NCBI RefSeq assembly: GCF_000178115.2 | Contig: NC_014828.1 | Location: 1,395,310 to 1,459,309, forward strand | Direction: 5' to 3' | Length of the DNA stretch: 64,000 nucleotides | From: Ethanoligenens harbinense YUAN-3 | GTDB lineage: Bacteria > Bacillota > Clostridia > Oscillospirales > Ethanoligenentaceae | Shown: piece by piece, positions 1-7,089 of the stretch | Layout of the letters: each line of letters opens with the position of its first letter | Position numbering within the stretch: the stretch's first letter is position 1 | Program-made: the position numbers and the translations under genes | The notes under the pieces: model-generated | Databases searched by the model: none | What the model was told of the DNA's origin: nothing | The model's input: the letters and a program-made list of their open reading frames with translations, nothing else

Positions 1-745
1 TGCCTTTAGCTTTATGAATAGTGGAAACTGTGAGTAATGATTCTCTTGTGTTCAAAAGCAATTCTGGTATTTTTACTGTTGGTTTACTGAGTTCAGCAGA
101 TAGTTTTTCAATCTCAATAAAAGGCTTTTTGTCATCATAAACCAATTCACAAAGAGCTTTATAGCAGAGCTCAGCCGTGACCTCATCATCGGCAACTCGG
201 CCGCAATATCTTGTAATAAAATCATCTTCAGTTATCCGTGAATCGGCTTGATAATCCCAAAAGCAATCTGCTATCCATCGATTTAAAGAAGCAACTTTTC
301 CAACTCCTCGCAACAAAGTATGGCTAATTCCATTCTTGAAGAGGAAGTGGCTTATGTATTCGGCTTCGCCGTTATTCCGGCAAAGTATTGCAGTTCTTTT
401 TGCAATATTGGAAAAGTCAAATGTTTCAATCGTTCCGGCGGCCTGAATACTACCAAGTTCGTCTTTGATAAACGAATTTACAACTGATGGATCGGCAAAT
501 TCAAGCAAAGCGCAACGCATATTATCTGATACACGTGCAAGGTTGGCGGTTTGCCTCTGATTCCCGGTCAATTCATATTTGAAAACATCTATCGGAAGAA
601 TTTTATCGAGCCGTTTATAGAATTCAACAGAGTTTACACTCGTTCCGTCGTGGCAATCATAATCATATATTGCTTGGCATTTATCGCCGAGCAGTAAATA
701 ACCGCCTGTTAGCGCGCTGAGAATATTTAATCTCTGAGGGTTTAA
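1..745 (-). pseudogene. UvrD/Rep-type helicase, 3' part (separated by IS insertion, cut by window edge)
   Basis: The minus strand is open without a stop from 745 to the window edge and continues the helicase that begins at 2284. Visible superfamily 1A motifs are motif III (LLLGDKCQAIYDYD, 700-660 area), a motif IV-like NQRQTAN stretch, and at the very edge the motif V-like TVSTIHKAKG. The order and spacing follow UvrD/PcrA-like 3'-5' DNA helicases. This half has no start codon of its own and is cut off from its Walker A half by the IS200-type element at 746-1336, so it is probably silent while the element is present. The C-terminal end lies outside the window. Confidence 0.85.
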
Positions 746-750
746 TTCCC

Positions 751-764
751 CGCCGCTTGCGGCG
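751..764. repeat. IS200-type left-end hairpin
   Basis: CGCCGC-TT-GCGGCG forms a perfect 6-bp stem just inside the left end. Subterminal hairpins like this are recognised by TnpA as single-stranded DNA in the IS200/IS605 family. Confidence 0.8.
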
Positions 765-816
765 TTAAATAAAAGGGTATAAAATTGGTATAACAAAAAA
801 CGAGAAGAGGGAAGAG

Positions 817-1275
817 ATGAGTGAGTATATTCATAAATCTCACAATGTCTCAGTGCTGATGTACCATTTTGTATGCCCCGCTAAATATCGCAGAGCGATA
901 TTTAGCGAAGAAGTTACCAAAACACTCGTAGAAGTGTGCGGAGGAATAAGCGAACGATTTGAGATGTACTTTGTTGAAATAGGTACAGATAAAAATCATG
1001 TGCATTTTCTAATACAATCAGTACCCAAGTACAGCCCGACGAAAATAATCACAACAGTGAAAAGTATAACAGCACGAGAAATATTTTCTAAACATCCGGA
1101 AGTAAAAAAACAATTATGGGGTGGAGAATTATGGACGGATGGATATTTTGTGAATACGGTAAGCAAATTTGGCAGTGAAGAAGTAATAAAAAGATACTTG
1201 CAGAATCAGGGTAAGACAGAGGAGTATAAACAACTTTACAAAGTTGAAACAATAGAACAACTCACGTTGTTTTAG
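817..1275 (+). CDS. tnpA: IS200/IS605-family Y1 transposase TnpA
   Basis: A 152-residue HUH single-strand transposase. The HUH metal-binding motif is H61-V-H63 in NHVHFLIQ. The catalytic tyrosine is probably Y127 in KRYLQNQG, followed by the usual Q-rich turn. The length is normal for the family. It would cut and join single-stranded DNA at the hairpin ends (peel-and-paste), leaving no footprint on excision. AGAAGAGGGAAGAG immediately upstream supplies the ribosome site. The gene looks intact, so the element may still be mobile. Confidence 0.95.
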   Translation: MSEYIHKSHNVSVLMYHFVCPAKYRRAIFSEEVTKTLVEVCGGISERFEMYFVEIGTDKNHVHFLIQSVPKYSPTKIITTVKSITAREIFSKHPEVKKQLWGGELWTDGYFVNTVSKFGSEEVIKRYLQNQGKTEEYKQLYKVETIEQLTLF

Positions 1276-2284
1276 CAAGGGTAGGGTTAGCATTGGATAC
1301 CCCGCCGCTTGCGGCGGGGTGATTCATTGTCATTAAGGCGCGTTCGTTAACAAGATCTTGTAGTTCATCTACAATTACATATTCGAAGTTTGAAAAATCT
1401 TCTTTTACGAACTTTTCATTGAACATATTAATTCTTCCATTATAATCCAATTGGACAAATTGCGCCTCAATAGTTGATAGGTAACTCGTTGCAAGGGAGT
1501 CAAATGTGCAAACATCCACATTTATTGCCGAATATGGAAGCAATCTCTGCGATACACCGGATTCCAAACGACTTGAAATCTCGTTCTTTGCAGCATTTGT
1601 ATATACAAGAACTAAGACGCTTGATAAATCCTCAACGAGTTCCTTGTTAATAATGTGTTCGAGCCTTTTTATAACAGTATAAGTTTTACCGCTTCCCGGT
1701 GCGGCATTAACGAGTATCTTGCTGTTAATTGGGGCTTCGATAATTGCGGACGGTTCCGCAATCTTTATAAATTCTTCAGGTTTAACAAATTCTTTGAAAT
1801 CTTCAATTATGGATTCTTCAGGAACTGTTTCTATTGATTCTTCATCTATTTCATTTTCTGCGAAGACTTCCTCAATATTTTCAATTCCAAGCCATTCATA
1901 TCTTAAGGCGGGACTTTTCTCTTCAGTAATATCAGCATGCTCAATTACTGCTTGTCGCGTAAATTTTGCAGCGCCTCCGCAGGACGAAAATGACTTACAA
2001 TTTGAGTATTCACAACGACCTTCCCAATTAATTAGCTTATCTTTACGCACAAGCCCATGAGTTGCCTCTCTATTTGAAGCATTACAACATGTTACATCAT
2101 TCTGCAAAATTGATTCTTGCCATTCGGTTAGGCGAAAAGAGGAAAGTGTTCCAGAACAGTATTGGCTCTTAAGTGTCTTAAGCCTTTGTTTTCCGGTGAT
2201 TTGATGAGCATATTTAATATCTCGCTGAATATCATCATTTGCACGAATATAAATATTACTGGATATTGTAATATTAGATTTCAC
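1262..2284 (-). pseudogene. UvrD/Rep-type helicase, 5' part (truncated by IS200-type element)
   Basis: The N-terminal half of a superfamily 1 helicase starts at a GTG with AGGAG about 10 nt upstream, 18 nt after the Hsp70-like gene. Residues about 1-190 are family-specific and hold a cysteine cluster, C91-x4-C96-x5-C102, which could bind zinc or an iron-sulfur cluster. Walker A is NAAPGSGKT at 193-201, and motif II is VDELQD at 305-310. Genuine helicase sequence ends at codon 316 (base 1337). The last 24 residues are translated from the IS. A truncated protein with Walker A and B but no domain 2 could still be made. Calling it inactive is an inference. Confidence 0.85.
1299..1320. repeat. IS200-type right-end hairpin
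   Basis: ACCCCGCCGC-TT-GCGGCGGGGT forms a perfect 10-bp stem with the same core as the left-end hairpin. It lies 16 nt inside the inferred right end and also covers the point where the interrupted helicase frame reads into the element. Confidence 0.8.
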
Positions 2285-2302
2285 TTCAGCGCATCTCCTT
2301 CA

Positions 2303-3766
2303 TTATTTTAAACCGGATATATCGTAATAGAAAGTAAGCTTATTCACTTCAACATTGGTAGGTTTGCTGTGTTGTAAGTCACCCATTGAATTATTATACA
2401 ACTGAATTCTTGCAATTTGGTCATCATCTATCCGCGCCGAAAGTCGAATGATTTCATTCAAATAGCCTTTCGTTGGTATTGTGGCCCGCTCAAACATGAC
2501 ACCATCTTCATTTGCAAAGTTAAAATGGGCATCTTGCGTGTCTTCGGTTAGAGAAAAACTCAGCGTTTCAATTACGGATCCAACGCCATGTTCTCCTTCT
2601 TTCAAAATCGGAAAAATTGAACCATCGCTCAAATATAGCCCAAGCGAGTTGTTTAACTTAAAATTGCCGCCGATGATTTGCATAAGAGCAGCACCCTCAG
2701 CAGTTGACCACTGAGGCTTGTCCGGCAAGATTACCTGGCTGTCTTTAAAAATGTTGGTTATCGCTTCTTCATACGAAGCGAGGTTGCTGCTGCCTCCGAC
2801 AATCACTATGGCATCAATACTTGCCGGTTTTAGATTTGCTCGCCCTAGTGCGGCATCAACAGCCTTGCGAATTCTGCTTTTTATTATAGGTTCAACAACA
2901 CCATTGAAAAGATTAACACTTACAGTGATAGACTTTGTCCCGTACATTCCGTAATTATAGATTGCAGATTCATAGTCATCTTCGGTATTTGAAATTTCGA
3001 TTTTTGCTTTTTCGCACCAAGAAATAAGATAATCTTTGCTTGCCAAATTCATATCTTCAAACGCTACAGGATTGTAAACTTCTGATTTTTTTATTATTTC
3101 TGCATGAACACGCTTTGCCAGAGCAAAATCGATGTCATCGCCTCCTACACGCTCGCCGAACACAGCGGTCTCTGTAATCGAGTTCTTTTTCAATTCCAGA
3201 ATGCTTATGTCAAAAGTGCCACCACCCCAGTCAAGAACCATAACTTTTGAAAAAGCTTGTCCCGCTTTGCGGTTAGCAAAATAAGCTGCCGTGGATTCAG
3301 ATAAAAAGGAGTTGACTTTTATACCAGCATTCTCTGCCGCAGTCCGGAGCTCTCTGCGAGCCTCCGGGGAAAAATCCACAGGGAATGAAAGCCCCGCTTT
3401 CGACAAATCAACGTCTGGATGAGTTCTTGATATGTAATCCTTTATGTATTTCAAAAACAATGTTGTAATTTCAGTGGCTGAATATCTATGATCACCAACT
3501 TTGAATTCTTTGTTGGTACCTAAAAATGATTTCATTGACGTGAATATCTCGTAATCAGAGGACAGTTCCTCGCGGTGGTTCTTAATGTCACGTCCGAATT
3601 TTAATGAACCACCATTCTGACGAGGAATAGCAACAATCGATGAGAATGGATAATCACCGCCCTCCCCAAGGTTGACGGTTTTATATCCATGCTCGTCATT
3701 AAACACCCGAACAACAGACGTGTTCGTTGTTCCAAAATCTATCCCGATAAAACTGCCCTTCTGCAT
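2303..3766 (-). CDS. Hsp70/DnaK-like ATPase of a putative defence or stress operon
   Basis: A 487-residue protein with the actin-like ATPase fold of Hsp70: phosphate-1 motif GIDFGTTNTS (8-17), phosphate-2 motif DWGGGTFD (179-186) and adenosine motif VGGSSNL (323-329). The nucleotide-binding domain fills about 370 residues and only about 120 remain, so the substrate-binding domain and lid are much shorter than in housekeeping DnaK (about 610-640 residues). No DnaJ or GrpE gene is adjacent. It sits 15 bp after the coiled-coil gene and 18 bp before the helicase, so co-transcription is likely. It is probably a dedicated chaperone or switch for the neighbouring proteins, but the actual client is unknown. 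Confidence 0.85.
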   Translation of the reverse strand: MQKGSFIGIDFGTTNTSVVRVFNDEHGYKTVNLGEGGDYPFSSIVAIPRQNGGSLKFGRDIKNHREELSSDYEIFTSMKSFLGTNKEFKVGDHRYSATEITTLFLKYIKDYISRTHPDVDLSKAGLSFPVDFSPEARRELRTAAENAGIKVNSFLSESTAAYFANRKAGQAFSKVMVLDWGGGTFDISILELKKNSITETAVFGERVGGDDIDFALAKRVHAEIIKKSEVYNPVAFEDMNLASKDYLISWCEKAKIEISNTEDDYESAIYNYGMYGTKSITVSVNLFNGVVEPIIKSRIRKAVDAALGRANLKPASIDAIVIVGGSSNLASYEEAITNIFKDSQVILPDKPQWSTAEGAALMQIIGGNFKLNNSLGLYLSDGSIFPILKEGEHGVGSVIETLSFSLTEDTQDAHFNFANEDGVMFERATIPTKGYLNEIIRLSARIDDDQIARIQLYNNSMGDLQHSKPTNVEVNKLTFYYDISGLK

Positions 3767-3781
3767 AATTCTTATCCGCCT

Positions 3782-4921
3782 TTATTCGTAAGTTATTCCA
3801 AATCTCTTTAGTAGTTTAAAGATTCGGGTAAGTGTAGACCGATATGCCTCAAACAAATCGGAACTATACTCGCTTCCCTTTGATGCCATAAAATCGGAAT
3901 AGTCCAGTTTTAGTGCTTCCGAAATATCGTTCTTCAGGGTTGCCAGTTCCTGATTCTTTGATATTTCATCCATGTTCAACGAAGTGCGGAGACGTTCGGT
4001 CAAATCGGAAACCTGCGCTTCAGATGAAGATAGGGTAGTTTTTATTTTCTTTAGTTCCAATGTTGAAAAACTTAGCTGTTGTTCCCTCTCACGAATGGTA
4101 GCTTGAGCAGTGGCAATCTCTCCATTTTTTTTCTGAATCTGCATCGAAAGGGTATCTATTGCTGCCCGGTTTTCTGTCAGCCTTCGTAATAGCAAGAGAA
4201 TTTCCGTCTGAGTAGATTCAATTTTTACAAGAGCATCTTTTGAAATCTGCGAGTCATAGTTCTTTGTCTTCTCCGCTTTTATAGAAGAAGTTTGGACTGG
4301 TTCTTCTTCTTTTGCAGTCTCTGCTTGCGCAACCTTTACAGCTGGTGGCTGAGAAACATCAATAGTTGTTGAAACAGTTCTGTCAACTACTGCATCTAGG
4401 AAACGTTCGAATCTCTGTTTTTCAAATGGGTTCGCTTTAAACGCATCCGCGTTAACTACTTCATAGAGCTTTTGAACGAAAGATAGTCCATTTACATCAA
4501 CAATAGTTTTTTTGAAGTTATTCTTACAGCCATCAGCAAACTGGCTCCCACTTTCTGAACGTATTAGAATGTAGTTAAGAATTGAAAATGCAAGCTCATA
4601 TTTTGAAGCTTTTGTCAACGACAGTACACTTCCGAACCCTTTCGGATAAAGAAAATTCTGCGGTTTGTCCTTTTGAAACTGCTCATTTGTGCGAAACTCC
4701 TCGACAATTGTGGCTAATTGCTCATTGCTGAGTTCCGTCGCTGCTCGATTAAAATAAGCAGGGCAAACAGAGTAATGAAGCTTCATTAGATAATCAGCTA
4801 CCTGCTTCGCATTATTTATCTCTTCCGACATTGTCAAAAGGATGGCAACCGCTTTCTTTCGGTTATCTTTGCTCAAGTCCTTCTTGGCACAGATTTCATC
4901 TAATACTTGTAAAGCTTCCAA
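3782..4921 (-). CDS. Uncharacterised coiled-coil protein (operon partner of Hsp70-like ATPase)
   Basis: A 379-residue soluble protein I cannot place in a named family. Residues 1-185 look like an all-helical globular domain. About 190-230 is a low-complexity linker (E/Q/P/S rich). About 230-330 is rich in heptad-like L/I/E/K/Q runs typical of a coiled coil, and 335-379 is a helical tail. No signal peptide or membrane segment is visible. It lies 13 bp after the preceding gene and 15 bp before the Hsp70-like gene. A structural or scaffolding role within the complex is a guess from the coiled coil. Confidence 0.75.
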   Translation of the reverse strand: MEALQVLDEICAKKDLSKDNRKKAVAILLTMSEEINNAKQVADYLMKLHYSVCPAYFNRAATELSNEQLATIVEEFRTNEQFQKDKPQNFLYPKGFGSVLSLTKASKYELAFSILNYILIRSESGSQFADGCKNNFKKTIVDVNGLSFVQKLYEVVNADAFKANPFEKQRFERFLDAVVDRTVSTTIDVSQPPAVKVAQAETAKEEEPVQTSSIKAEKTKNYDSQISKDALVKIESTQTEILLLLRRLTENRAAIDTLSMQIQKKNGEIATAQATIREREQQLSFSTLELKKIKTTLSSSEAQVSDLTERLRTSLNMDEISKNQELATLKNDISEALKLDYSDFMASKGSEYSSDLFEAYRSTLTRIFKLLKRFGITYE

Positions 4922-4934
4922 TGTGTTTCCTCCA

Positions 4935-6401
4935 TTAACTGATCTTTAGTTCGCTGCGGTCATATCCGCACAAGTTAAGTATACGCTCGCAGCAGGATTT
5001 TATTTCCCCGCTTGCCTTGTTTTTTGCCACAGACAGCCCGTTTGATAATATATATGATTCAGCCGAGTTGTCACGCTCGTCAAGCCAAAGGACAGGAGAC
5101 CCGCCCGATTGAACTAATTGTTTAACACCTATGACAAGAGCTTTATAGGGCTTTTTGAGAATCATTGCTTCGCATAGCTTTACGAGAACATCATCCCAAC
5201 TTTTTGTAGCATATGTTTTGCCAAGTAGTGTGAACCCCGAAGGTACCGGATTTCTTGTTTCGGCAGATTCATTAGTATCGGGAATGCTACTTGTTTCTTC
5301 TGGCGACAGAGTGATTGGGATAAGATGAGAATTTTCAATCTGTGTTTTTAAGCTGACATACCATCTATCGAAATATTCTCTGTCTGGACGATACCACTGG
5401 CTGCAAAACAGAATTGTTGTAGTACCCAGTTTAAAAGCCTCTGCCCAGTAACGATTTTTGCTGCTTTCAGATCCAGTTTGTTCTCCTAAAAAGTCTTTTT
5501 CACAGAGCAACTTAGCAAACGGATAATTAAGGTTAAGAACCCGCTTGCTCCAATTTTTATCTTGCCATAAATGTAATTCATTCTCAGTTGGCTGAAAACC
5601 AGTATCGCACAAATCTCTCAATTTCGTGCGAACATAAAAGCCAACTTTAACTTGTTCAGATGCAGTTTCTTCTAATTGCTGAGATTCGACAATAGAATTG
5701 GGAAATAGTTCTTGAATTTGTCGTTCGTCGGATGTCTTATCGAAATGCTTGTTTAGCGAATCATACCAATCGTCAAAATACGGCAAATATATCGAAGCCC
5801 ATCCACTGTAAATAAGCAGTATAACGTCACCAAATTTAAACCTGTCTTTTACCCAGTAACGACGCGGTGTTCCGGCGATAGAAGTTTGCCTGAGAATTTC
5901 CTTTGTTTCATCATATATTCTTGCAAATTGGTGAGGCAGACCAAGAATTCTTCTGCTCCAGGCTGAGTCCTGCATATTTCGCAATTGTTCCTCAGAAAAA
6001 ACAAAACCGCTTTTGCTCAATTGATATAATTTCTGCCTTACATAATCACCGGCACTGCTATATGAAGCATCTTCCGAATTCTGTTCTAGTTCCATTGGCA
6101 CGGCTTCAGCGTTTGGTGGTTCTAATTCTTTTTCTATAGCTGGCTGCGAAACAACCGTCGGTGTTATAATGATGCGATTGGATGCAAGATATGAACCCGC
6201 AATTTCTTTTTGAACCGAAGTGAGACTCTCTGACCATTTTCTCAGTTGTTGAATCTTTGTTCGGGCATCTAACATGACTTCTTTGGCTTCAGCCATATCT
6301 TCAATGTCTATAGCTGCATCGTAACGCCGTTTTTCTTCCTGCTCTTTTGTGCGTAACGCATCAATAAGAGTATTTATTTGAAGCTCTATTTCACTTGACA
6401 C
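4935..6401 (-). CDS. Uncharacterised protein with tandemly duplicated domain
   Basis: I place the start at the GTG at 6401 because AGGAGG lies 7 nt upstream (6409-6414). An upstream ATG in frame would overlap the XRE gene and has no such site. The 488-residue product has a charged helical N-terminus. It then has two copies of a domain of about 100 residues (about 120-220 and 255-355), both running YVR-KL--L---GF ... W--R-L-L---FA ... RYW ... YFD-WY-SL. A C-terminal module (about 390-488) begins F-LLGK-Y--KSWDDVL. The function is not recognised. The aromatic-rich repeats suggest ligand or partner binding, as inference only. Confidence 0.75.
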   Translation of the reverse strand: MSSEIELQINTLIDALRTKEQEEKRRYDAAIDIEDMAEAKEVMLDARTKIQQLRKWSESLTSVQKEIAGSYLASNRIIITPTVVSQPAIEKELEPPNAEAVPMELEQNSEDASYSSAGDYVRQKLYQLSKSGFVFSEEQLRNMQDSAWSRRILGLPHQFARIYDETKEILRQTSIAGTPRRYWVKDRFKFGDVILLIYSGWASIYLPYFDDWYDSLNKHFDKTSDERQIQELFPNSIVESQQLEETASEQVKVGFYVRTKLRDLCDTGFQPTENELHLWQDKNWSKRVLNLNYPFAKLLCEKDFLGEQTGSESSKNRYWAEAFKLGTTTILFCSQWYRPDREYFDRWYVSLKTQIENSHLIPITLSPEETSSIPDTNESAETRNPVPSGFTLLGKTYATKSWDDVLVKLCEAMILKKPYKALVIGVKQLVQSGGSPVLWLDERDNSAESYILSNGLSVAKNKASGEIKSCCERILNLCGYDRSELKIS

Positions 6402-6427
6402 GCCAGCACCTCCTATTGATTTGGTTA

Positions 6428-6658
6428 TTATTTCGTCAAAGACGTTTCTTTTTGAGATTTTACAAAAACGAGAATGTCTGATGTTTTGCAATCGAATAAT
6501 TCACATAGCTTATTAAGCGTATTATAATCCACGCGTGTTATACGATCATGGTACAAATCGGAAATTGTGCTCCTGCTTATTCCGGTTTTCTCAAAAACAT
6601 CCTGAATGTTATATCGTCTTTCACCCATGAGCGTTGAAAGCTTACAGTGAATGGCCAT
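6428..6658 (-). CDS. XRE-family (Cro/CI-type) regulator
   Basis: A 76-residue single-domain helix-turn-helix protein of the small YozG-like type. The HTH is at about 15-45 (YNIQDVFEKTGISRSTISDL), with a typical tail containing LNKLCELFDCKTSDIL. AGGAGA lies 9-10 nt before the ATG. It precedes the repeat-domain protein by 26 bp and is probably the transcriptional regulator of this operon. Confidence 0.9.
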   Translation of the reverse strand: MAIHCKLSTLMGERRYNIQDVFEKTGISRSTISDLYHDRITRVDYNTLNKLCELFDCKTSDILVFVKSQKETSLTK

Positions 6659-6669
6659 ATACTATCTCC

Positions 6670-6966
6670 TTATTTAACCCTTATGAAATGGCATTGCAGT
6701 GCTCTTGCCAATTCGCCGTTCCGAGGATATCGAATCTGGATGGCATCTTTTCTGACAAAACGTTCAGAAAAGTTAACATTCCGAATCTGCGCTACATATT
6801 TTTTCCCATTAAGATAGATGCTTATGGGCTTTACTTCTCCTCGTTGCAGAAATTTTCCCATATTTCGTGTAAAGATCACCTGATTTTCAACAGGTAAAGT
6901 AAGGCCTTCGTTTAGCAAAGACCAATGGACCTCAGTTTTATATACATAATTTTCGAAGTCTTCCAA
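6670..6966 (-). CDS. Small uncharacterised protein, first gene of the island operon
   Basis: A 98-residue reading frame ending 11 bp before the XRE gene. The only in-frame start that keeps the full frame is a TTG at 6966 with a weak GAGAAGA upstream, so the start is uncertain. The middle part (GEVKPISIYLNGKKYVAQIRNVNF) looks like a beta-rich domain that recurs at the front of some restriction or HNH nuclease proteins, but no nuclease motif is present here. It may be a truncated remnant or a genuine small subunit. Confidence 0.5.
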   Translation of the reverse strand: MEDFENYVYKTEVHWSLLNEGLTLPVENQVIFTRNMGKFLQRGEVKPISIYLNGKKYVAQIRNVNFSERFVRKDAIQIRYPRNGELARALQCHFIRVK

Positions 6967-7060
6967 ACCGCCATCTTCTCAAAATAATTTTATAAAAAAG
7001 TGGTTTACTGATTTGTTACTGGAGTATTGTGTTACCGGTTTTCTATGAAAATCCAATTAT

Positions 7061-7089
7061 ATTGTACTTCTTTCAATCCTATAGTGCAA
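7061..7089 (-). promoter_or_regulatory. Predicted promoter of the Hsp70/helicase operon
   Basis: On the minus strand TTGCAC (7089-7084) and TACAAT (7066-7061) are separated by exactly 17 bp. An alternative -10, TATAAT, overlaps a few bases further on. Transcription would start near 7054 and give an untranslated leader of about 90 nt before 6966. No other promoter of this quality was seen before the downstream genes, which supports one operon. Confidence 0.5.

What the first reader, a model, noticed from the sequence alone, without database searches (positions are those of the whole stretch)
1..7089. Candidate undescribed operon: XRE, repeat-domain protein, coiled-coil protein, Hsp70-like ATPase and UvrD-type helicase
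Seen: six minus-strand genes with gaps of 11-33 bp, one predicted promoter upstream, and AT-rich composition unlike the rest of the window. The Hsp70 has an intact ATPase core but a short substrate domain. The two large partners (488 and 379 residues) match no family I know. Established: small XRE genes and SF1 helicases are typical of defence or genome-maintenance islands, and chaperones acting with helicases are rare. Inference: a chaperone-gated helicase complex that may act on invading or damaged DNA. I cannot name a known system with this gene set.
Basis: partly seen in the sequence, partly recalled or inferred. Interest (0 to 1): 0.85.

Follow-up and report, generated by a model that had tools for sequence, protein, structure and literature searches.

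The report
Hsp70-bearing DISARM-type defence operon, IS-broken
The genes are the front half of a virus-defence operon of the DISARM kind that carries its own Hsp70-type chaperone, a variant I found in at least ten other bacterial sequences and in no paper I could search, but the helicase gene of this particular copy is cut in two by a jumping gene.

Summary
The gene set is real, but two things change its meaning. First, the operon continues left of the window: the helicase is followed by drmA (PADLOC DrmA, 4e-227) and drmB (2.5e-70), the core of the DISARM anti-phage system. A Wadjet type II system lies next door. Second, the UvrD-like helicase gene is interrupted by an IS200/IS605-type element (about 726-1328), identical to three other copies in the genome. 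This copy therefore probably lacks a working helicase.

The set recurs. Coiled-coil protein, Hsp70-like ATPase, UvrD-like helicase, DrmA and DrmB occur in that order in 11 other loci (Bacillota, Synergistaceae, Gastranaerophilales, a viral contig). Their DrmA proteins fall in one well-supported clade, and divergence of the genes is congruent (Hsp70 against DrmA, Mantel r=0.94). Some members carry a DrmMII methyltransferase; the window operon has none.

The Hsp70 keeps every ATPase motif but lacks the lid. Its coiled-coil partner is predicted to be a HEAT-like domain with a 120-residue helix. Two distant genomes encode such an Hsp70 beside only the helicase's zinc-binding N-domain, suggesting where it docks.

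Verdict: a new variant of a known kind (DISARM). Chaperone gating is a plausible, untested inference.

The parts
6670..6966 (-). small protein, 98 aa, first gene of the cluster, no family
   Evidence: no counterpart of this size seen in the closest relative L035
6428..6658 (-). XRE/Cro-type regulator, 76 aa (HTH_26 5e-19)
   Evidence: L035 has a 71-aa HTH-like ORF in the same place
4935..6401 (-). 488-aa protein: two ~105-residue repeats plus a C-terminal domain shared with the DUF4357 protein encoded after drmB in L035; variable 5' module, possible sensor or adaptor
   Evidence: homologues only in L035 (465 aa) and a fragment in L036
3782..4921 (-). 379-aa HEAT/ARM-like helical domain plus 120-residue helix (coiled coil); core gene of the clade
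   Evidence: alignment A2 of 12 homologues, AlphaFold2 pLDDT 78, no PDB fold match at E<0.001
2303..3766 (-). Hsp70-like ATPase, 487 aa; intact nucleotide-binding domain, SBD-beta-like C-terminus, no lid
1262..2284 (-). 5' part of the UvrD-like SF1 helicase gene: zinc-binding N-domain, motifs I and II; cut by the insertion (frame runs about 20 codons into the IS before a stop)
726..1328 (+). IS200/IS605-type insertion element (tnpA 817-1275 +, hairpins near both ends), 4 identical copies in the genome
1..725 (-). 3' part of the helicase gene (motif III onward); continues 683 bp left of the window to C1:1394627, then drmA (C1:1391428-1394613), drmB (C1:1389566-1391422) and a DUF4357 gene (C1:1388991-1389569)

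Best explanation
This is the 5' part of a DISARM-type anti-phage operon of a distinct, Hsp70-bearing class: [XRE - variable 5' module] - HEAT/coiled-coil protein - Hsp70-like ATPase - UvrD-like SF1 helicase with a zinc-binding N-domain - DrmA - DrmB - [variable 3' gene, often a NERD-nuclease helicase; sometimes a DrmMII methyltransferase nearby]. Shown: gene content, order, intact catalytic motifs, recurrence and joint inheritance. Inferred mechanism: the Hsp70 with its HEAT/coiled-coil partner is an ATP-driven switch docked on the N-domain of the UvrD helicase. When the coiled-coil partner (or the 5' module) meets an infection cue, such as a phage protein or an abnormal replication complex, the Hsp70 cycle loads or releases the helicase on invading DNA. 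The helicase then exposes single-stranded DNA that DrmAB binds and clears. Cleavage would be left to the accessory NERD-type protein where present, or to a host nuclease. Where DrmMII is present, methylation probably adds self/non-self discrimination. The window copy has no methyltransferase in its operon, so it would rely on DNA structure and the Hsp70 gate. In this strain the helicase is cut by an IS element, so the system is probably inactive or reduced to DrmAB.
For: DISARM core: PADLOC DrmA 4e-227 and DrmB 2.5e-70 directly downstream in the same direction. Conserved unit: cc-Hsp70-UvrD-DrmA-DrmB in 11 other loci, all in one DrmA clade of 14 rows with SH-aLRT 100; the two rows without a seen Hsp70 are a contig starting inside drmA and a Zorya hybrid. 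Congruent divergence: Mantel r 0.94 (Hsp70-DrmA), 0.84 (cc-DrmA), 0.81 (UvrD-DrmA), all p=0.0002. Reverse search anchored on the Hsp70, not on DrmA: all five strong non-own hits among 398 genomes have cc-Hsp70-UvrD, two of them followed by DrmA. Hsp70 ATPase residues are invariant across the family. Docking clue: G821 and G862 encode a related Hsp70 beside a stand-alone homologue of the UvrD N-domain (E 1e-21 to 2e-23) without any helicase. Defence context: Wadjet II next door, DrmMII in three relatives, NERD-helicase genes after drmB. DrmAB binds ssDNA with a 5' overhang (PMC9142583). A chaperone can carry the phage signal to a defence protein: bNACHT25 needs DnaJ and its DnaK-coupled activity (PMC12169576). 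IS interruption.
Against: Nothing functional was tested. No J-domain or GrpE-like partner was found: Pfam gives none for the cc or 488-aa proteins, and the HPD motif is absent from the cc, 488-aa and UvrD 5' parts. How the Hsp70 would be driven is therefore open. The cc model has pTM 0.46 and no fold match. No complex was predicted. The docking clue comes from two genomes of one genus, whose Hsp70 has altered phosphate loops. In G680 the triad sits with a phosphorothioation-type cluster rather than DrmAB, and its UvrD lacks the first motor domain, so helicase gating cannot be its only role.
Confidence: 0.5

Rival explanations
1. The Hsp70 and its partner are a dedicated assembly or folding chaperone: they keep the large helicase complex soluble and assembled and take no part in sensing or gating.
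For: An Hsp70 with intact ATPase motifs and an SBD-beta-like domain fits a client-folding role; strict co-inheritance with the helicase and DrmAB fits a dedicated client.
Against: DISARM core proteins co-express and purify without a dedicated chaperone (Serratia DrmAB in E. coli, PMC9142583), and other UvrD-DrmA-DrmB loci have no Hsp70. A HEAT-like domain with a 120-residue helix is unusual for a plain folding factor. A related Hsp70 persists without helicase or DrmAB in G821 and G862.
Confidence: 0.22
2. The Hsp70-like protein mainly binds nucleic acid (RNA), as proposed for CnuD in type III CoCoNuT systems, and brings the complex to phage transcripts or R-loops.
For: CoCoNuT systems combine an Hsp70-like NBD/SBD with HEAT-like repeats and coiled coils (PMC11090510), the same domain mix as Hsp70 plus cc here.
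Against: CnuD is reported to have degenerate Walker A-like motifs and to be nearly inactive; here every ATPase motif is conserved. No McrB-like GTPase or HEPN gene is in the core. Homology of the two Hsp70 groups was not tested.
Confidence: 0.13
3. The operon is a DNA-repair or genome-maintenance module rather than a defence system.
For: DrmA belongs to the YprA helicase family, one branch of which (MrfA/MrfB) is repair-related (PMC12458937); UvrD/PcrA-type helicases act in repair.
Against: Patchy presence: the cc protein was found in none of 146 relatives, and DrmA in 7 of 390 other genomes of the class. A+T-rich island beside Wadjet II and a type II restriction system, DrmMII in relatives, best matches to the DISARM DrmA/DrmB profiles.
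Confidence: 0.07
4. Unrelated defence genes happen to be neighbours in a defence island.
For: Wadjet and a type II restriction system lie close by, so mixing is expected.
Against: Same gene order in 11 other loci across several phyla, one DrmA clade, and Mantel r 0.62-0.95 between all pairs of the five genes.
Confidence: 0.02

Closest known systems
DISARM (Ofir et al. 2018; structure of DrmAB in PMC9142583)
   Same: drmA and drmB adjacent and in the same order; separate DUF1998 gene; defence island; DrmMII C5-methyltransferase in some relatives
   Different: UvrD-like helicase in the place of DrmE or DrmD; dedicated Hsp70-like ATPase and HEAT/coiled-coil protein; no drmC in the window copy; no methyltransferase in the window operon
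ARMADA, BRIGADE and TALON (YprA-family systems, PMC12458937)
   Same: YprA-family helicase in an operon; ARMADA type II also has a GajB-like UvrD helicase
   Different: No BrxHII-like helicase or PglX-like methyltransferase here; the DUF1998 part is a separate gene; the paper's text contains no mention of Hsp70, DnaK or chaperone
CoCoNuT types III-A to III-C (CnuD, PMC11090510)
   Same: Hsp70-like NBD/SBD together with HEAT-like repeats and coiled coils in a defence operon
   Different: There with McrB/McrC homologues and Hsp70 with degenerate ATPase motifs; here with UvrD-DrmA-DrmB and an intact Hsp70
Gabija GajB and other UvrD-like defence helicases
   Same: SF1 helicase of the UvrD/PcrA fold; GajB profiles match
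   Different: No GajA; extra zinc-binding N-domain and conserved C-terminal domain
Actinobacterial sister loci: sacsin-type ATPase/RadD-like helicase - UvrD - DrmA - DrmB (this work)
   Same: UvrD-DrmA-DrmB core, preceded by an ATPase of a chaperone-related fold
   Different: Sacsin-type (Hsp90-like) ATPase domain fused to an SF2 helicase instead of Hsp70 plus cc

Membership tests
DISARM | drmA helicase present | tested here: met
   1061 aa, PADLOC DrmA 4e-227; helicase motifs aligned and intact
DISARM | drmB, separate DUF1998-type gene | tested here: met
   618 aa, PADLOC DrmB 2.5e-70, MZB zinc-binding domain 1.9e-6
DISARM | own DNA methyltransferase (DrmMI or DrmMII) in the operon | tested here: not met
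   Motif scan finds none in 40 kb around the window copy; the only two C5 methyltransferases found in the genome belong to a type II RM about 25 kb away and match MTase_II better than DrmMII. DrmMII is present in relatives L115, L165 and L168
DISARM | drmC (PLD nuclease) | tested here: not met
   The gene after drmB encodes a DUF4357 protein; drmC is reported non-essential (PMC9142583)
DISARM class 2 | drmE | tested here: not met
   UvrD family against the DrmE-position family: hhalign probability 0.1%
DISARM class 1 | drmD (SNF2-type helicase) | tested here: not met
   No DrmD match among the PADLOC-scanned operon proteins
[quoted passage not shown]
   Neither matched among the operon proteins; no N6-methyltransferase motif ORF in 40 kb
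CoCoNuT | McrB-like GTPase with coiled coil (CnuB) | tested here: not met
   No such match in the operon; one relative (L045) has an AAA_5 protein plus LlaJI nuclease upstream
CoCoNuT CnuD | homologous Hsp70 with degenerate Walker A | tested here: not met
   ATPase motifs intact; direct homology to CnuD not tested, no sequence at hand
Hsp70 superfamily | Hsp70 nucleotide-binding domain with catalytic motifs | tested here: met
   Pfam HSP70 2.3e-30; GIDFGTTN, K79, E157, DWGGGT, VGGS conserved
Hsp70 superfamily (canonical DnaK-like chaperone) | peptide-binding SBD-beta plus alpha-helical lid | tested here: inconclusive
   hhalign to the genome's own DnaK runs to residue 467 of 627, covering SBD-beta, but the C-terminal part alone is not significant (probability 1%); lid absent by length
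Gabija | GajA next to GajB | tested here: not met
   No GajA match in the operon
IS200/IS605 element | Y1 HUH transposase (TnpA), terminal hairpins, precise repeated boundaries | tested here: met
   NF033573 135.6 bits against a cut-off of 55; four copies share ends TTTAATC...GATTCATT with different flanks

The most novel reading that the evidence does not exclude
A chaperone-gated class of DISARM: a dedicated Hsp70, held by a HEAT/coiled-coil partner on the zinc N-domain of a UvrD helicase, acts as a nucleotide switch that arms a DrmAB DNA-clearing machine. Chaperone-type ATPases (Hsp70 in this clade, a sacsin/Hsp90-like domain in the sister clade) would then be interchangeable front ends of one UvrD-DrmA-DrmB core.
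Probability: 0.3. Interest if true: 0.87.

Novelty: new variant of a known kind. Interest (0 to 1): 0.64.

Why it matters
How DISARM tells invading DNA from its own, especially where no methyltransferase is encoded, is open. A conserved class with a dedicated Hsp70 on its helicase gives a concrete, testable answer: an ATP-driven protein switch. It would also add a case of chaperone machinery used as a phage sensor or gate, alongside the DnaJ-dependent bNACHT25. The front ends seen on related UvrD-DrmA-DrmB cores (Hsp70 plus coiled coil, sacsin-type ATPase, Zorya ZorAB) point to a modular architecture that the PADLOC profiles used here recognise only through DrmA, DrmB and generic UvrD matches.

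Tried and rejected
Searching with the 379-aa protein alone: no match in 146 relatives, 390 class genomes or plasmids; it evolves too fast, so DrmA was used as the anchor. The 488-aa protein found nothing in plasmids or the PDB. Hsp70 alone in plasmids gave mostly DnaK/HscC-type matches and an unrelated haloarchaeal Hsp70-DnaJ pair. UvrD as a disguised DrmE: rejected (hhalign 0.1%). cc protein as GrpE or J-protein: no Pfam support, no HPD motif. Nearby C5 methyltransferases as the system's DrmMII: rejected, they belong to a type II RM with two restriction enzymes and Vsr. Chance clustering: rejected. Foldseek of the cc model gave only weak ARM/HEAT/TPR-like matches (best E 0.05). Papers: none on Hsp70 in DISARM, but the 2018 DISARM paper and most subscription journals are not held.
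Full report
WHAT IS THERE. The window is bases 1395310-1459309 of a 3.0 Mb single-contig genome. Two corrections follow from looking closer and further left.

THE HELICASE IS BROKEN. A + strand ORF at 817-1275 is an IS200/IS605 TnpA (Y1_Tnp 3.9e-37; NF033573 135.6 bits, cut-off 55). The element, about 726-1328, is 100% identical to three other copies in the genome, with the same ends and different flanks. It splits the UvrD-like gene between motif II and motif III. The two halves align end to end with the intact 767-aa homologue of locus L035 (residues 1-322 and 321-766). Intact copies exist in relatives; this one is interrupted.

THE OPERON CONTINUES OUTSIDE THE WINDOW. Directly after the helicase, on the same strand, come a 1061-aa DrmA (C1:1391428-1394613; PADLOC 4e-227), a 618-aa DrmB (C1:1389566-1391422; 2.5e-70, MZB zinc domain) and a 192-aa DUF4357 protein. 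Next are jetA, jetB, jetC and jetD of a Wadjet type II system.

IT RECURS. A scan of 84,980 species genomes with a DrmA alignment, and of viral contigs, returned 96 loci. In 11 of them the order is coiled-coil protein - Hsp70 - UvrD - DrmA - DrmB where the contig allows (L036 ends after drmA): L035 (Oscillospiraceae, 70% Hsp70 and 75% DrmA identity, with an HTH-like ORF, the 488-aa-type gene and the DUF4357 gene in the same places), L036 (Synergistaceae), L037, L038, L041 (Gastranaerophilales), L042 (Anaerosalibacter), L043, L044 (Eubacterium coprostanoligenes), L045, L062, and L115 (IMG/VR). The middle part of this protein family, the coiled-coil protein, is recognised in the more distant loci by its place and by a network of significant pairwise matches rather than by direct similarity to the window protein. 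In a DrmA tree of 103 sequences all 12 Hsp70-bearing loci fall in one 14-row clade (SH-aLRT 100). The other two rows are L039, whose contig begins inside drmA, and L046, where ZorA-ZorB-ZorC-like genes take the Hsp70 place. Divergence of the five genes is congruent (Mantel r 0.62-0.95, all p=0.0002; Hsp70-DrmA 0.94). Congruence shows joint inheritance, not physical contact.

REVERSE TEST. Searching 398 genomes of the phylum with the Hsp70 profile (anchored on Hsp70, not DrmA) gave five strong non-own hits (E<=1e-159). All five carry cc-Hsp70-UvrD. G597 (the same locus as L043, so not independent) and G551 continue into DrmA and carry a DrmMII gene (5e-156 or better). G594's contig ends in UvrD. 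G626's UvrD lacks the first motor domain and is followed by a metabolic gene. In G680 the triad (again with a UvrD missing that domain) precedes a PLD nuclease, a second UvrD, a BrxP-type PAPS reductase and SspB, a phosphorothioation-type cluster. The triad is thus a module that is usually, not always, joined to DrmAB.

THE PARTS. Hsp70: invariant or nearly invariant GIDFGTTN, K79, E157, DWGGGT and VGGS motifs in 12 sequences; closest solved structures are DnaK; alignment to the genome's own DnaK reaches the end of SBD-beta but the lid is missing. cc: AlphaFold2 (pLDDT 78, pTM 0.46) gives an 11-helix HEAT/ARM-like domain, a disordered linker, one 120-residue helix and a C-terminal helix; no solved fold matches at E<0.001; its most conserved part is the C-terminal 50 residues. 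UvrD: four invariant N-terminal cysteines, all SF1 motifs, a conserved C-terminal domain, PcrA/UvrD fold, not DrmE. The 488-aa protein has two repeats and is a variable 5' module. After drmB, relatives carry a NERD-helicase (L041, L044; L043, L045 and L115 have a gene of similar size and place), an RT of the UG19 type (L042) or nothing. No core protein is a recognisable nuclease.

HOW IT MAY WORK. Known: DrmAB is autoinhibited and activated by DNA with a 5' single-stranded tail; DrmC is dispensable (PMC9142583). Inferred: UvrD supplies or extends single-stranded DNA and DrmAB engages it. The Hsp70 with its cc partner decides when, through its ATP cycle. The best hint for contact is in G821 and G862, where a related Hsp70 gene sits beside a stand-alone homologue of the UvrD zinc N-domain and no helicase. 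That those Hsp70s have altered phosphate loops limits the weight of this clue. A chaperone relaying a phage-protein signal has precedent in bNACHT25, which needs DnaJ (PMC12169576). In the sister DrmA group a sacsin-type (Hsp90-like) ATPase domain fused to a RadD-like helicase precedes UvrD-DrmA-DrmB, so chaperone-fold ATPases may be repeated front ends of this core. I put identity as a DISARM-related system at about 0.95 and the gating mechanism at about 0.4.

WHAT IS KNOWN. The YprA-family survey (PMC12458937) names ARMADA, BRIGADE and TALON and does not mention Hsp70 in its text. The CoCoNuT paper (PMC11090510) describes Hsp70-like CnuD with HEAT repeats and coiled coils, but with McrBC partners and degenerate ATPase motifs, and reports a DISARM-like system beside some McrBC genes without describing an Hsp70 there in the passages read. 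No paper found links Hsp70 to DISARM; the library lacks most subscription journals, and supplements and figures were not readable, so a prior listing cannot be excluded. The window operon fails the methyltransferase, DrmC, DrmD and DrmE tests for canonical DISARM classes, so I file it as a new variant rather than as a class 1 or class 2 member.

Noticed in passing
L046:3616-14872 (Acetatifactor sp. Tb.RUG.447): ZorA - ZorB - ZorC-like - UvrD (without the zinc N-domain) - DrmA - DrmB in one direction: a Zorya/DISARM hybrid nested inside the Hsp70 DrmA clade.
   Followed up: partly
L167:485-15000 (G680:C48): cc - Hsp70 - UvrD lacking its first RecA domain, followed by a DrmC-like PLD protein, a 1019-aa unknown, a second UvrD, a BrxP-type PAPS reductase and SspB: the Hsp70 module joined to a phosphorothioation-type cluster.
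   Followed up: partly
L170:8470-10698 and L171:8295-10448 (G862, G821): Hsp70-like protein with altered phosphate loops next to a stand-alone homologue of the UvrD zinc N-domain with a coiled-coil tail, in a metabolic neighbourhood, with no helicase or DrmAB.
   Followed up: partly
L049:3456-8168, L053:2048-7555, L114:2823-7586: About 1600-1800-aa proteins with a sacsin-type ATPase domain (NF047352, 65-73 bits, cut-off 50) and a RadD-like SF2 helicase precede UvrD-DrmA-DrmB in Actinobacteria and others.
   Followed up: partly
L005:4484-12432 (C1:1380983-1388931): Complete Wadjet type II system (JetA2, JetB2, JetC2, JetD2) directly after the DrmAB operon.
   Followed up: yes
L175:8921-14736 (C1:1358920-1364735): Type II restriction system with two C5 methyltransferases, two REase-like genes and Vsr, right beside another copy of the same IS200/IS605 element.
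   Followed up: yes
L005:493-4394 and L006:9892-11121: By eye from the sequences: a Ro60/TROVE-like protein, two WYL-type regulators and an RtcB-like ligase, resembling an RNA-repair operon beside Wadjet.
   Followed up: no
L042:15014-17125 (Anaerosalibacter bizertensis): A UG19-type reverse transcriptase (PADLOC 2.7e-169) directly after drmB in an Hsp70-type operon, in the slot where other loci have a NERD-helicase.
   Followed up: no
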